64,000 nucleotides of DNA from positions 1-64,000 of the forward strand of contig WFTL01000024.1 in the NCBI GenBank assembly GCA_015485495.1, in the 5' to 3' direction. Source of the stretch: Planctomycetaceae bacterium (GTDB lineage Bacteria; Planctomycetota; Planctomycetia; Planctomycetales; Planctomycetaceae). Both the position numbers and the translations under genes were made by a program. Shown here piece after piece: positions 10,158 through 14,284 of this stretch. The notes under the pieces are model-generated. The model worked only from the letters and a program-made list of their open reading frames with translations. It had not been told where the DNA came from and made no database searches. Within the stretch, counting starts at the first letter, position 1. Every line of letters starts with the position of its first letter.

Positions 10158-10439
10158 ATGTCGCTGCCTTCCGTAGAACTGCTGATGTCGCGACACCGTT
10201 TTCCGTGCCGCTATATGTTCAAGGTGATCGGTGCGGCGGACGATCGGTTTCTGGCGCGCGTGGTGGCCGCGGTTCGGGATGAACTGTGTCTGGAAGCAGA
10301 TCCGGAATACACGATGCGGTCCACCCGCAGCGGACACCACATCGCCATCACTCTGGAACCGGAATGCGAGTCTCCTCAGAAGGTGCTGGCGATCTACAGC
10401 CGACTGTCGGGAATGGACGGCGTGGTGATGCTGCTGTAA
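10158..10439 (+). CDS. DUF493 family protein (YbeD-like)
   Basis: Small cytoplasmic protein of 93 residues with the ferredoxin-like fold of DUF493/YbeD; family function is unsettled, with regulatory or lipoate-related roles suggested by context in other bacteria. The segment PCRYMFKVIG near the N-terminus, followed by an amphipathic helix and the C-terminal VLAIYSRLSGMDGVVMLL, matches the family pattern of ending in a short hydrophobic strand. ATG 10158 is preferred over the 33-nt-longer frame at 10125 because the family normally starts about 15 residues before the FKVIG strand. A TATAAT box lies 36 nt upstream. Its stop codon abuts the decayed 3' end of hicA on the opposite strand. Confidence 0.8.
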   Translation: MSLPSVELLMSRHRFPCRYMFKVIGAADDRFLARVVAAVRDELCLEADPEYTMRSTRSGHHIAITLEPECESPQKVLAIYSRLSGMDGVVMLL

Positions 10440-10645
10440 ACGCGGCGGCTTTCGGGCAGCCTGTCGAATGATGGCGCGCAGTGTTCCCCTGGCGATTCCC
10501 TGTGATCGGGAATCGCCAGGCGCCTGTACGGTGGATCCTGCCGGCGCAGAATCATGTGGCTGCCTCGCTGTCTGTCAAAGACATATCCAGTCTTTTCCAG
10601 TGCCCTGATGACTTCGCGACCGGAAACGACCGGCAGGGCACTCAC
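10440..10645 (-). pseudogene. hicA: hicA toxin, frameshifted and truncated
   Basis: HicA-family mRNA interferase remnant. The N-terminal half is intact: a GTG start overlapping hicB's stop as GTGA, then SGREVIRALEKTGYVF and RQRGSHMILRR, which contains the catalytic His in a GSH motif. After IPDHRE the annotated frame turns into non-HicA sequence, while a different frame at once gives ARGTLRAIIRQA, the conserved HicA C-terminal motif. One base is therefore missing (or two inserted) near 10494. Even in the restored frame the usual GLS-EEFLELL ending is gone, and the reading runs into the 3' end of the DUF493 gene. I infer an inactivated toxin beside an intact antitoxin. The frameshift lies inside a perfect 13-bp inverted repeat. 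Confidence 0.82.
10488..10520. repeat. Perfect 13-bp inverted repeat at the hicA frameshift
   Basis: Arms CCTGGCGATTCCC and GGGAATCGCCAGG flank a 7-nt loop (10501-10507). The hicA frame breaks inside one arm. An intact gene with one extra base there would be an imperfect palindrome, so the perfection of the repeat and the frameshift may be the same mutation event. Confidence 0.85.
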
Positions 10646-10854
10646 GGTGTGACCTCCACAATCTCTTCGGCAATCGATGGTGGCACCGGTTCACCGTCTG
10701 CTTCGAGGCTCTCCAGGTACCCGGCAATTGCTTCCTTGATGTTGTTGATCGCTTCCGTACGGGTTTCGCCCTGTGAAACACAGTCAGGAAGCGCAGGGAC
10801 TTCGGCGACGTAAACGCCGTCTTCATCCTGCTCGATCAGGACTCGATATCGCAC
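10642..10854 (-). CDS. hicB: HicB-family antitoxin
   Basis: Antitoxin of 70 residues of the short HicB type: MRYRVLIEQDEDGVYVAEVPALP, then GCVSQG-like CVSQGETRTEAINNIKEAI and a C-terminal acidic stretch. It has the partial RNase H fold that binds HicA; no C-terminal DNA-binding domain is present, as in short HicB proteins. Start is GTG 10854 with a strong GGGAGGAG Shine-Dalgarno 6 nt upstream. It is the first gene of the pair and overlaps hicA by GTGA, the classical hicBA order. As the toxin is broken, the antitoxin is probably a relic, or could neutralise HicA proteins encoded elsewhere. Confidence 0.9.
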   Translation of the reverse strand: MRYRVLIEQDEDGVYVAEVPALPDCVSQGETRTEAINNIKEAIAGYLESLEADGEPVPPSIAEEIVEVTP

Positions 10855-10919
10855 GGAACACTCCTCCCGGAATCATCATGGAGCAGACTCGATCTGCGGC
10901 TGCGATGAACAGCAGGAGA

Positions 10920-11010
10920 CCACAACCACCGATGGCCTGCGATCCCGATATGCCCCACGACACGCCCTGTTCCGTGTATGCGTACGGGGAACTGCAGTTC
11001 CCAGACCGGA
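10920..11010 (-). pseudogene. Possible decayed ORF6N-domain fragment
   Basis: Codons at 10961-10987 read PYAYTEQGV, almost the ORF6N signature PYAFTEQGV found in phage/mobile-element DNA-binding proteins. Just upstream in another frame is WELQF, like the ELRFQ element that normally precedes it, and downstream SGSQAIGG resembles the SERAIQVN helix. The rest of the domain is missing and the pieces are in different frames. I call this a tentative relic, consistent with the neighbouring broken hicA. The rest of 10855-11467 shows no convincing gene in any frame. Confidence 0.35.
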
Positions 11011-11467
11011 TCCAGGAGCACAGCGACGCCGATCCGGCAGCAGCGCATGACGCGAGCCGTCCGGTTGCGGCGCGGGTGAGCGTACGCACCGGAGGCCTCG
11101 GGGCCCTGCGTTTCCCTGCACTGTCCCACGACTCCGTTTTCTGGGCCTGCTGCCTCCCGGCACACAACACACGACAACGAACATCTTTCGCCTGCCGACA
11201 GTTTTTTCGCCCCGGACTCTTGACAAACGCACCCGCACTTTGTGAATTTGCCTTTGTTCGCTGTCGTGTGATTTCAGTGAGTCACGGGGCCCGGTGGTGT
11301 GTTGAGGGGGCATCTGATGACTCATCTCGTTCACAACCCTCTGTGGAAGCGGCGATGCCGTGCTGCATCTGCCCCCCCGCAAAGACACACACCACGACCG
11401 TTGCGCCCGGTACGACAGCGTTTTCCAGCGCCCCGTTCATCAACCGACTGCCGGTCACCAGAGTTTT
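11011..11467. other. Gene-poor accessory spacer
   Basis: No frame here has a Shine-Dalgarno, family motif or sensible composition. It contains an isolated TTGACA at 11220-11225 without a matching -10. Together with 10855-11010 it looks like decayed sequence between the hic locus and the secreted-protein cassette. Confidence 0.4.
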
Positions 11468-11674
11468 TCACGCAGGGTGACGGCGACGAGTCCGCTGCCC
11501 GTCTTTCCGGTATGTCACATACAGCCTCCGGACCGTCTGGGCCGGAGTGATTCTCGCCTCTGTCAGCCGGGCACTGATCCGCCGGTCGTGCCGACTGACG
11601 GAAAACCGCAGATCCTCCAGCGATTCGAAGCGGACAACGATTTCGACAGGTTCGGTGGAGCGGATTCTGGCCAC
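11468..11674 (-). CDS. Small hypothetical protein (68 aa)
   Basis: I do not recognise this protein. It is a short, basic, soluble sequence starting ARIRSTEPVEIVVRF and ending in an Arg-rich tail, with a pattern of alternating hydrophobic residues (VEIVVRF, DLRFSV, RLYVTY) that suggests small beta strands. Support for a real gene is a GTG start at 11674 preceded by AGGAG at 5 nt spacing and good GC at third codon positions. It is transcribed away from the MauE-like gene, sharing a 222-nt divergent region that contains an inverted repeat and a GAAC-N4-GTTC box. Its small size and basic charge would be compatible with a regulator or RNA-binding protein, but nothing proves that. Confidence 0.45.
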   Translation of the reverse strand: MARIRSTEPVEIVVRFESLEDLRFSVSRHDRRISARLTEARITPAQTVRRLYVTYRKDGQRTRRRHPA

Positions 11675-11798
11675 AGGAACTCCTGTGTGAAACTCGGAAA
11701 ACGGGCTTCACAGAAGGCCGCACGAGATCAGGACGATTTGCCATCGATAATGCACCAACTGCCCGAAGTGCGCGCCGGGCCCAGAGAGTGCGCGCGGA

Positions 11799-11836
11799 TT
11801 GTTTGACAGCACTGGACATCTGTACTGCTCAAACAA
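11799..11836. promoter_or_regulatory. 38-nt imperfect inverted repeat upstream of the redox/secreted-protein cassette
   Basis: TTGTTTGA at 11799-11806 pairs exactly with TCAAACAA at 11829-11836; the inner bases add a further CAG/CTG and AC/GT pairing across one bulge. There is no T-tract, so it is not a standard terminator. Its place in the divergent spacer suggests an operator. A TTGACA (11803-11808) lies within the left arm. Confidence 0.55.
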
Positions 11837-11851
11837 CGAGCCGTACAGCAC

Positions 11852-11870
11852 TATGATGAACAACAGTTCA
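11852..11870 (+). promoter_or_regulatory. Candidate -10 box overlapping a LexA-like palindrome
   Basis: TATGAT at 11852-11857 is a 5/6 match to the sigma70 -10 box and is directly followed by TGAACAACAGTTCA (11857-11870), a palindrome GAAC-N4-GTTC of the type bound by Gram-positive LexA (Cheo box). The expected transcription start would fall in the palindrome, an ideal repressor position. No good -35 is present. Whether planctomycete LexA uses this motif is unknown to me. Confidence 0.4.
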
Positions 11871-11896
11871 TTGCCTTACCCATAAGGAACTGACGA

Positions 11897-12376
11897 GTGC
11901 TTACACGTCGGCCGGCAATCACGAGGATTTCCTCAGCATTTGCGCGTTTCGCTGGCGGTGTACTTTTATCGGCCGGATTCGCCAAACTTCCGGGCACTGG
12001 AGTTTCCACGCTGTTCCAGGCCCACGCGTTGCCCGATTCCCTGGTCACAGCAGCCGCCCAGGTGGAAATCATCGTCGGACTGTGGCTGATCACGGGCTGG
12101 CGACGCCGGAGTGCATCGATCGTTGCCGGTTGCCTGTTCGTTGTTCTGGCCGTGTTTGCCGCACGCCAGTTGTACTTAGGGGAGTCTCAGTGCGAATGCT
12201 TCGGAGCTGTCAGTCTTCGGGCCCCATCATGGTTATGGTCATCGTACCACGCGCTTGTATTCGATGTGGTGGCAGCGATGATCCTTCTTCTGGCATCCCG
12301 CTCAGCGTACCTCACACCAGACGCGAGCACCTGCCACGACGCTGTCCCAGCGCGAAGTTCTTCACCGGTTCAATAA
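11897..12376 (+). CDS. MauE/DoxX-like redox-associated membrane protein
   Basis: Integral membrane protein of about 159 residues with four predicted helices (about 16-30, 52-68, 73-92 and 116-134), the topology of the MauE/DoxX family. The CECFG motif at residues 99-103 is the family's conserved cysteine pair and is thought to take part in thiol-disulfide exchange during maturation of cysteine-rich periplasmic proteins, as MauE does for methylamine dehydrogenase. Start is GTG 11897 with AAGGA 8 nt upstream. The next gene, 11 nt downstream, encodes a secreted protein with 14 cysteines, the obvious candidate client. Specific function is inferred from family and neighbourhood. Confidence 0.8.
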   Translation: MLTRRPAITRISSAFARFAGGVLLSAGFAKLPGTGVSTLFQAHALPDSLVTAAAQVEIIVGLWLITGWRRRSASIVAGCLFVVLAVFAARQLYLGESQCECFGAVSLRAPSWLWSSYHALVFDVVAAMILLLASRSAYLTPDASTCHDAVPARSSSPVQ

Positions 12377-12387
12377 AGGAGATCATC

Positions 12388-12918
12388 ATGCGTCCTTCTC
12401 CGTTTACACGTGCGACCTTCAGCAGCTCCCTTTTTAAGCACATCTGTGCAGTGATGGTGTTCGTTTCGCAGCTGCAGCCTGCGTACTCCTGCGTTGTGAA
12501 CTATACCGTGCCTGCTGTGAAAGAACCATGCTTATGTGCGTCCAATGCGTGCGCGTATCGAGGGAGGAGGACGGAATGGCATGTCACCGTCCGCGGTGCG
12601 ATTCAGGGAGAACAGGGATACGACACAGTTGCGGGTTCAATCCGGTCGGTAGGGACAACCAACAACTGCACGATGCGCATCGATTGGAAGGCCCTGTTGG
12701 GCTGTACCGCACTTGTTACAACGTGTACACTCACTTGCGCGGGAGTTGCCACTGGAGTTGGTGTTGCAGTGTGCATCGGCTGTCTGTCCAGTTCCGGATT
12801 CGCCTGTGGAGTAGACTGCTTGATTCAAACCTGCGTCGAAGATCCGTCCGGCGCAACCGATGTGATGGCCTACGTTGTCGACAGTGTCGGCGGGACATGT
12901 ACCGGAACCGGCAGCTGA
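12388..12918 (+). CDS. Cysteine-rich secreted protein, bacteriocin-like C-terminal core
   Basis: Protein of 176 residues with an N-terminal signal (hydrophobic 16-34, likely cleavage after AYS) and 14 cysteines in the mature part, at 35, 48, 50, 55, 94, 106, 113, 117, 129, 132, 140, 144, 149 and 171. Residues 106-149 form a small, Gly/Ala/Thr-rich hydrophobic segment with eight Cys, reminiscent of halocin-C8-like and other disulfide-rich bacteriocins, while 35-100 could be a leader or immunity-like part as in the HalC8 precursor. The resemblance is in layout, not proven homology. ATG 12388 has AAAGGAG 6 nt upstream. It sits between a putative disulfide-forming membrane protein and a tail-anchored secreted protein. 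Confidence 0.7.
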   Translation: MRPSPFTRATFSSSLFKHICAVMVFVSQLQPAYSCVVNYTVPAVKEPCLCASNACAYRGRRTEWHVTVRGAIQGEQGYDTVAGSIRSVGTTNNCTMRIDWKALLGCTALVTTCTLTCAGVATGVGVAVCIGCLSSSGFACGVDCLIQTCVEDPSGATDVMAYVVDSVGGTCTGTGS

Positions 12919-12998
12919 TTTAACAGACATGTATCTGCAGGGACTGGTGTCGGACCGCAGTTCCGGTGGACATGCAGCCTGCGGGAGGAACGGAACGA

Positions 12999-14246
12999 AT
13001 GCCTGGATATCGCCCTCTGTTCGCAGTGATCCTGATGACAGCTGCTGGTGCCGCGTCGAACTCAGTTTCGACGGTGGCTGCCGGCGCGCCCGAAAGGATT
13101 CGTGAACTCGTCGATCATGCCTGGGAGGAACCTCCCCGTTCTCTGGATATGACGTTCATGAGAAAAAAGCGTGTTCGACCTCGCTCTGACGACGAAGTGA
13201 TCAGGAATTTGCAGGAAACCTACGAGCCGCAGAGAAAGCAGTTCCTTGATCCCAACGAGTTTCAGAAGTTTTTCGAACGGGAGCTGGAGCGGACACTGCG
13301 GGCCCAGAGGGAACCGCGGATCAGGAAGCAGCGAGTGCGGGCGCAGGGTGAGTTTTACCGACTGGATGATGTGCTGCAGTGGCACGAACCAATCGATGAA
13401 AGCACAGAATTCAATGTGTCGTACATCCACAGCGGATTCATGGAGTCCGGTGTGTACGAAAACATCGTCTACCATTACGGAGCGAAATCCGCGACACGCT
13501 ATCTCGACAGCCGAAAGCCGATGTGGTACCAGGAACAGTTGTGGAAAATCGGTTCCATCGGGCAGACGCCCATTATTCAGATCCGAGCGGCGACCGGTGA
13601 TGTGCAGGGCGACGAGGTGATTCGGAACGACAGGAAGGTCGACGAACTGTGTCGCGGAGAAAATCCGCGTTTGAAAATCGACGTCGATCAGACAACGCTG
13701 AAGGGAACGCGCGTGTATCGGTTCCGGCTGTATGAAACCTCCTCGATACCTTTGTTGTTCTCGGCAACGCTGCTTTCCGCGGTCTTTGTTGCCGTGGATC
13801 CTCCCTGGCGAGTTCTGCAGTCCGATGTCTTTCACCCCCGCAGTGGGGAGCTCATGTTCCGGGCGACCGCGAGTCAGTTCGATGAAGAAGGGTTCCCGTG
13901 GTTCTACCGCGAGGACAAGTATCACGACGACGGTTTTCATGAATGGGACGAGTTCGAGATTCTGGCGGTGGATCGGGAGACCGTGATTCCCCAGGAAGTG
14001 TTCGAGTACCATGTTCCGGAAGGTTTCATGGTGAAGGGGGATGTGTACGAAGACAAAATGATCTTTACGGAATTGTTCGAACGCGGGAAAAAGAATCAGG
14101 TTATTCCCGTGCCGCCAAGGCCCGCCCCGCCCGCCATGACAGGCCGAAGTGTGATGTTCTACGGCAATCTCATTTTCGTCACTGTCTGCCTTTCCGTCAT
14201 GCTCTACCAGCGAATGATGTCCCGGAAGCGCGTCAGGAATTCGTGA
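12999..14246 (+). CDS. Secreted, C-terminally membrane-anchored protein of unknown function
   Basis: I do not recognise a family. The 415-residue protein has an N-terminal signal (about 1-28), a charged helical region (35-110) rich in Arg/Glu, a beta-rich central domain (about 115-370) and one C-terminal transmembrane segment (about 388-408) followed by a basic tail SRKRVRN, so the body should lie outside the inner membrane. The charged region contains the unusual run RKKRVRPR. ATG 12999 follows GGGAGGA at 9 nt, better than ATG 12966. It is the third gene of the cassette, 80 nt after the Cys-rich protein, and its codon use appears less GC-biased than that of flanking housekeeping genes. A role in processing, sensing or immunity for the Cys-rich product is conceivable but unproven. 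Confidence 0.75.
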   Translation: MPGYRPLFAVILMTAAGAASNSVSTVAAGAPERIRELVDHAWEEPPRSLDMTFMRKKRVRPRSDDEVIRNLQETYEPQRKQFLDPNEFQKFFERELERTLRAQREPRIRKQRVRAQGEFYRLDDVLQWHEPIDESTEFNVSYIHSGFMESGVYENIVYHYGAKSATRYLDSRKPMWYQEQLWKIGSIGQTPIIQIRAATGDVQGDEVIRNDRKVDELCRGENPRLKIDVDQTTLKGTRVYRFRLYETSSIPLLFSATLLSAVFVAVDPPWRVLQSDVFHPRSGELMFRATASQFDEEGFPWFYREDKYHDDGFHEWDEFEILAVDRETVIPQEVFEYHVPEGFMVKGDVYEDKMIFTELFERGKKNQVIPVPPRPAPPAMTGRSVMFYGNLIFVTVCLSVMLYQRMMSRKRVRNS

Positions 14247-14284
14247 GCGCCGGGTTGCTTTCGGAAGCGGTGCAGCGGCTGGTG

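What the first reader, a model, noticed from the sequence alone, without database searches (positions are those of the whole stretch)
11852..14246. Three-gene redox / Cys-rich secreted protein / tail-anchored protein cassette: candidate new disulfide-rich bacteriocin or secreted-effector system
Seen: a MauE/DoxX-like membrane protein with CECFG, 11 nt later a signal-peptide protein with 14 mature cysteines, eight in a compact Gly/Ala/Thr-rich core (residues 106-149), then a 415-residue secreted protein anchored by one C-terminal helix. All three have good Shine-Dalgarno sites. Known: MauE-type proteins help form disulfides in periplasmic clients, and halocin-C8-like peptides are Cys-rich cores released from larger precursors. 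Inference: the membrane protein oxidises the Cys-rich product, and the third protein processes, senses or protects against it. No part has a standard annotation as such a system.
Basis: partly seen in the sequence, partly recalled or inferred. Interest (0 to 1): 0.75.

Follow-up and report, generated by a model that had tools for sequence, protein, structure and literature searches.

The report
Planctomycete disulfide-rich secreted-protein gene cassette
Three neighbouring genes in a planctomycete bacterium belong to a recurring gene cluster that I found no description of, which appears to make a small exported protein held together by disulfide bonds, with a membrane redox enzyme and a membrane-anchored partner; what the exported protein does is not known.

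Summary
The three genes are real, same-strand and tightly packed: MauE (11897-12376, over the Pfam cut-off), an exported protein with 14 mature cysteines (12388-12918), and an exported protein with one C-terminal membrane helix (12999-14246). They sit in a 3.85-kb segment that two congeners lack at the same site. Of 30 loci in other planctomycetes with a relative of the anchored protein, 21 have an adjacent, divergent Cys-rich exported protein, 19 a DUF1573 gene and 10 a PMT-type glycosyltransferase; a few have MauE or C39 peptidase. By a fixed rule, Cys-rich exported ORFs are about 50 times denser beside these genes than elsewhere in the same loci. All four relatives found with the window MauE have a Cys-rich neighbour; of 30 strong generic MauE loci 1 does, of 30 DoxX loci none. 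Cysteines persist while the rest of the exported protein diverges. The halocin C8 link fails: the curated model finds halocin C8 (1e-16) but not this protein or its kin. Most likely this is a dedicated export and disulfide-forming cassette for a variable secreted protein: MauE (DUF1573 elsewhere) oxidises it and the anchored protein holds or presents it. Bacteriocin, surface protein and metal binding remain open.

The parts
11897..12376 (+). Gene A: MauE-family membrane protein, 159 aa, CECFG motif; proposed thiol oxidant
   Evidence: Pfam MauE 2.3e-9, over cut-off; nearest by tree path to MauE proteins with Cys-rich neighbours (but on a long branch)
12388..12918 (+). Gene B: exported Cys-rich protein, 176 aa, 14 mature Cys; proposed disulfide-bonded client/product
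   Evidence: ORF, signal peptide and Cys positions; no Pfam/NCBIfam family; relative P0005 in L017 beside a C homolog, BLASTP 4e-4; fold unusable, pLDDT 41
12999..14246 (+). Gene C: exported protein, 415 aa, with one C-terminal transmembrane helix followed by basic residues; proposed membrane-anchored partner
   Evidence: ORF; homologs in G012, G360, G462, G463, G465 and others; BLASTP 1e-10 to P0006; tail survey
12375..12390 (+). AAAGGAGATCATCATG: ribosome-binding site and start of B, 11 nt after A
   Evidence: sequence
12984..13001 (+). GGAGGAACGGAACGAATG: ribosome-binding site and start of C
   Evidence: sequence
10440..14284 (.). Accessory segment of about 3.85 kb holding the cassette; absent from the same site (DUF493 / isochorismatase-SMP30) in two congeners
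   Evidence: GC of A, B, C 55-59% against 60-63% in flanking genes

Best explanation
The three genes are a minimal, MauE-bearing member of a planctomycete gene-cluster type that makes and holds a dedicated exported, disulfide-scaffolded protein. B is exported by its signal peptide. Its 14 cysteines are paired outside the cytoplasm with help from the MauE membrane protein; in most relatives a CxC-bearing DUF1573 protein takes that place. C, facing out and anchored by one C-terminal helix, binds B as carrier, display partner or receptor. In richer clusters a PMT-type glycosyltransferase and sometimes a C39-type peptidase would modify or cut the product. Shown: gene order, recurrence of the association, export signals, persistence of cysteines while the rest of B diverges, absence of the segment in congeners. 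Inferred: that MauE/DUF1573 oxidises B, that C binds B, and any outward-directed role (competition, signalling or surface) of the variable product.
For: A is MauE over the Pfam cut-off. Loci were found by similarity to C or A, never to B, yet Cys-rich exported ORFs occur at 0.090/kb within 3 kb on the same strand against 0.0017/kb elsewhere in the same loci (20 against 1), and in 21 of 30 C loci once divergent ones are read by eye. The four MauE relatives found with the window MauE (L091-L094) each have one nearby, against 1/30 strong MauE loci and 0/30 DoxX loci. L091 fuses MauE to DUF1573. DUF1573 accompanies C in 19 of 30 loci and every one carries CxC; a selenocysteine (UGC) form of DUF1573 is reported (PMC9312934), which fits a redox role. 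Cysteines stay while the sequence changes: 18/18 at 45% identity, 14/14 at 48%, 8/8 at 38%.
Against: No experiment and no usable fold: models of B and C have mean pLDDT 41 and 38. No MauD-like thioredoxin partner lies in the cassette. MauE is in only 2 of 30 C loci outside the window, and the exact A-B-C order was not seen elsewhere. The window B matches only one relative by pairwise search; most other Cys-rich partners are linked by position and character, not by sequence. Nine C loci lack a recognisable B, and G012's C stands alone. The refined C profile's weaker hits (E 1e-4 to 1e-8) rest mainly on the C-terminal part.
Confidence: 0.55

Rival explanations
1. B is a disulfide-rich bacteriocin or similar antagonistic peptide; C is its immunity or sensing protein, and the glycosyltransferase and C39 peptidase of larger clusters mature it.
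For: Small, exported, Cys-scaffolded, highly divergent products with tandem copies (L075, L081); one pair (G093/G095) shares a nearly identical export segment (dS 0.06) but a wholly different mature part (dS 1.81), suggesting module exchange; C39 peptidases lie in or beside some clusters; the segment is accessory.
Against: Not in the halocin C8 family; no dedicated ABC exporter seen; no double-glycine leader recognised; C39-like genes also sit near MauE without any Cys-rich ORF (13 of 30 generic MauE loci); most pairs show dN below dS, so no sign of positive selection.
Confidence: 0.2
2. B is a surface or cell-wall component (or attachment protein) displayed on C; the cassette builds a variable disulfide-linked surface layer.
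For: C is membrane-anchored with a secreted domain; PMT-type glycosyltransferases commonly modify surface molecules (own knowledge); DUF1559 pseudopilin genes are near several clusters.
Against: Small size and patchy occurrence; absent from both congeners.
Confidence: 0.17
3. B is a metal-binding or redox-buffering exported protein rather than a disulfide-bonded one, with MauE/DUF1573 keeping its thiols in order.
For: High Cys content; one generic MauE locus (L118) has a short Cys/His-rich protein of that look.
Against: B of the window has a single mature His; CxC/CxxC spacing is not regular among relatives.
Confidence: 0.05
4. Unrelated genes that happen to be neighbours.
For: The exact A-B-C order was not seen elsewhere.
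Against: Recurrence of B-C in several families of the phylum and about 50-fold enrichment.
Confidence: 0.03

Closest known systems
MauE (methylamine utilisation; Pfam PF07291)
   Same: Membrane protein over the family cut-off with the CxCFG motif; in the mau operon MauE (with MauD) is needed for the disulfide-rich small subunit of methylamine dehydrogenase (own knowledge)
   Different: No MauD and no methylamine dehydrogenase genes beside it; the proposed client is an unrelated exported Cys-rich protein
Halocin C8 (NCBIfam TIGR04449)
   Same: Cys-rich Gly/Ala-rich core inside a larger exported protein, by eye, in the window B and its closest relatives only
   Different: The model that finds halocin C8 at 1.1e-16 does not find B at E up to 10; most B relatives have no such core
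DUF1573 proteins (Pfam PF07610)
   Same: Fill the place of MauE in most related clusters, carry CxC, once fused to MauE (L091)
   Different: Absent from the window cassette
LolA/LolA_like exported proteins (PF17131, TIGR00547)
   Same: Two C relatives give sub-threshold hints (E 0.046 and 0.035)
   Different: Neither reaches the cut-off; C has a C-terminal membrane helix; no usable fold
Disulfide-bonded bacteriocins with their own thiol oxidoreductase (for example sublancin with BdbB; own knowledge)
   Same: Logic of a dedicated oxidant beside a Cys-rich exported peptide
   Different: Different oxidant family, no exporter, no tested activity

Membership tests
MauE (PF07291) | Score over the curated Pfam cut-off | tested here: met
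   38.1 bits against 27
MauE (PF07291) | Classical mau setting: neighbouring MauD and methylamine dehydrogenase genes | tested here: not met
   Neighbours are B, C, DUF493 and isochorismatase/SMP30; so it is a MauE-family protein, not a mau operon
Halocin C8 (TIGR04449) | Match to the halocin C8 domain model | tested here: not met
   No match at E up to 10 for B and three relatives; positive control matches at 1.1e-16
Halocin C8 (TIGR04449) | Antimicrobial activity of the released C-terminal peptide | not testable with these tools
   needs purified peptide
LolA-like exported proteins | Score over the Pfam/NCBIfam cut-off | tested here: not met
   Best hints E 0.035-0.046 in relatives, none for the window C
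LolA-like exported proteins | Half-barrel lipid-binding fold | tested here: inconclusive
   Model mean pLDDT 38; no credible sequence match to solved structures
Planctomycete Cys-rich export cluster (defined here) | Exported Cys-rich protein next to a C homolog on the same strand | tested here: met
   Window and 21 of 30 other loci
Planctomycete Cys-rich export cluster (defined here) | MauE or CxC-bearing DUF1573 in the cluster | tested here: met
   MauE in the window; DUF1573 in 19 of 30, MauE in 2 of 30 C loci
Known anti-phage defence systems (PADLOC) | Match to any PADLOC model | tested here: not met
   no hits

The most novel reading that the evidence does not exclude
Planctomycetes carry an undescribed family of modular clusters that make hypervariable, disulfide-scaffolded, possibly glycosylated and proteolytically matured exported proteins, whose mature parts are swapped behind conserved export segments, each with its own redox enzyme and membrane-anchored partner: a phylum-specific secreted-effector or antagonism system.
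Probability: 0.25. Interest if true: 0.85.

Novelty: new variant of a known kind. Interest (0 to 1): 0.6.

Why it matters
It joins several planctomycete proteins without known function (DUF1573, the C family, some two dozen divergent Cys-rich proteins) to known enzymes (MauE, PMT-type glycosyltransferase, C39 peptidase) in one testable hypothesis, and proposes a redox client for DUF1573, whose role is open. If the product is released, it would be a new source of disulfide-rich peptides from a little-explored phylum.

Tried and rejected
Direct searches with B alone found no relative in 170 family genomes (two weak hits are chance matches inside or across other genes), viral contigs, plasmids or genome contigs. 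The profile of C found no credible solved structure. Halocin C8 membership was rejected with a positive control. Generic MauE loci were tested as a control and mostly show no Cys-rich neighbour, so 'MauE always partners a Cys-rich protein' is rejected. Positive selection on B was not supported: most pairs have dN below dS. Promoter, terminator, Rfam and tRNA scans were uninformative. No convincing terminal repeats bound the 3.85-kb segment. Literature searches (open-access PMC only) for DUF1573 with planctomycetes, MauE with DUF1573, halocin C8 with planctomycetes, and C39 with Cys-rich planctomycete proteins returned no paper.

Full report
What is there. Reading the window confirms the three genes: A, GTG 11897-12376, MauE family; B, ATG 12388-12918, 176 aa with signal peptide and 14 mature cysteines, eight of them in residues 106-149; C, ATG 12999-14246, 415 aa with signal peptide and one C-terminal helix. 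A and B are 11 nt apart, B and C 80 nt, and each start has a Shine-Dalgarno-like sequence. By a fixed rule B is the only Cys-rich exported ORF in the 64 kb.

Where it sits. In the two other genomes of the genus, an exo/endonuclease gene, DUF493 and an isochorismatase/SMP30 gene follow each other with a few bases between the last two; in the window a 3.85-kb segment (10440-14284) lies there, holding a HicB gene with a damaged hicA and the A-B-C cassette. A, B and C have 55-59% GC against 60-63% for the flanking genes. The cassette is therefore accessory: gained here, or lost in both relatives.

Relatives. B alone finds nothing convincing. C finds a lone homolog in G012, whose contig matches a record named Planctomycetaceae bacterium. 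A two-sequence profile then found G360, of another family in the same class. There the gene directly upstream of the C homolog encodes an exported protein with 14 cysteines that resembles B (22% identity, E 4e-4), and the gene downstream is DUF1573. Further rounds gave C relatives in G462, G463, G465, G648, G014, G089 and, at lower scores, 14 more family genomes, with a second copy in the window's own genome (contig 61).

The cluster type. Neighbours were read from the fetched loci. Among 30 loci with a C relative, 21 have a nearby short exported Cys-rich protein (listed; L017, L043, L038 cut by the contig end), 19 have DUF1573, 10 a PMT-type membrane glycosyltransferase (Pfam PMT_2), 3 a C39-like peptidase, 2 MauE, and several a DUF1559 pseudopilin. 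The order varies. Tandem Cys-rich copies occur (L075, L081). Most full-length C relatives end in one hydrophobic helix followed by basic residues, often with an Arg/Trp...Asn stretch at its start (29 of 35 rows have such a helix; several of the rest are fragments).

Control. Anchors were chosen by similarity to C or to the window MauE, not by cysteines. Cys-rich exported ORFs under the fixed rule number 20 within 3 kb on the same strand (0.090/kb) and 1 elsewhere (0.0017/kb), and that one lies by a glycosyltransferase of the same cluster. In 30 strong Pfam MauE loci one such ORF was found, in 30 DoxX loci none; the flanks of these control loci were 1.5 kb, shorter than the 3 kb used for the anchors. 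The four MauE genes found with the window MauE itself all have a Cys-rich gene nearby (L091, L092 and L094 by the rule, L093 by eye). L165, a sister of L094, has two; seven longer MauE loci fetched at the same time have none of convincing look. The nearest rows to the window MauE in a tree are those with Cys-rich neighbours, although it sits on a long branch and its place is unsure. So only some MauE proteins serve such clusters.

Redox part. MauE and DUF1573 seem to take each other's place: DUF1573 in most clusters, MauE in the window, both in L093, fused in L091. All DUF1573 proteins in these clusters carry a C-x-C, and a selenocysteine form with UGC is listed in the literature (PMC9312934). 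Together with MauE's known role for the disulfide-rich methylamine dehydrogenase subunit (own knowledge), this supports thiol oxidation of B as the cassette's chemistry. It is an inference; no thioredoxin-like MauD partner is present.

Divergence of the product. Between relatives, cysteines stay while other residues change (18/18 at 45% identity; 14/14 at 48%; 8/8 at 38%), the pattern of a disulfide scaffold. One pair within a genus (L094 and L165) has an almost identical export segment (dS 0.06) but a very different mature part (dS 1.81), which suggests exchange of modules. Most pairs have dN below dS, so there is no general sign of positive selection.

What it is not. PADLOC has no match. 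C is not shown to be LolA-like: hints lie below cut-offs and the fold models are too poor.

Verdict. The larger finding is a recurrent planctomycete cluster for disulfide-rich exported proteins, of which the window holds a small MauE-type member.

Noticed in passing
window 10424-10854, minus strand: HicB-type antitoxin gene (10642-10854, Pfam HicB_lk_antitox 6e-12) followed by a hicA reading frame that loses its family's usual end, at the left edge of the accessory segment; a perfect 13-nt inverted repeat (10488-10520) lies near where it goes off.
   Followed up: partly
L090 (G000 contig 61) 2-4600: Second cluster in the window's own genome: PMT-type glycosyltransferase, a short stretch where a small exported gene seems broken, a C relative, and an exported C39 peptidase.
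   Followed up: partly
L161 (G000 contig 167): Third cluster in the own genome: weak C-like protein, C39-like protein with a rhodanese domain, MauE, DUF1559; no Cys-rich gene seen. The same order, with a Cys-rich gene, is in L082 (G127).
   Followed up: partly
L091:2666-3637: MauE fused to DUF1573 in one protein, beside a Cys-rich exported protein.
   Followed up: yes
L092:1862-3694: C39 peptidase fused to DUF1573 in a cluster with MauE and a Cys-rich protein.
   Followed up: no
L094:3564-3863 and L165:7113-7526: Two Cys-rich genes from G093 and G095 share an almost identical export segment and upstream DNA but very different mature parts: possible module swapping.
   Followed up: partly
MauE control loci L097-L126: 13 of 30 strong MauE loci in the family have a C39-like gene within 1.5 kb, mostly without a Cys-rich ORF: another MauE context of unknown role.
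   Followed up: no
L043 and L044: DUF1573, a C-like protein and (L043) a Cys-rich gene lie next to PilT/PilB-like ATPase genes.
   Followed up: no
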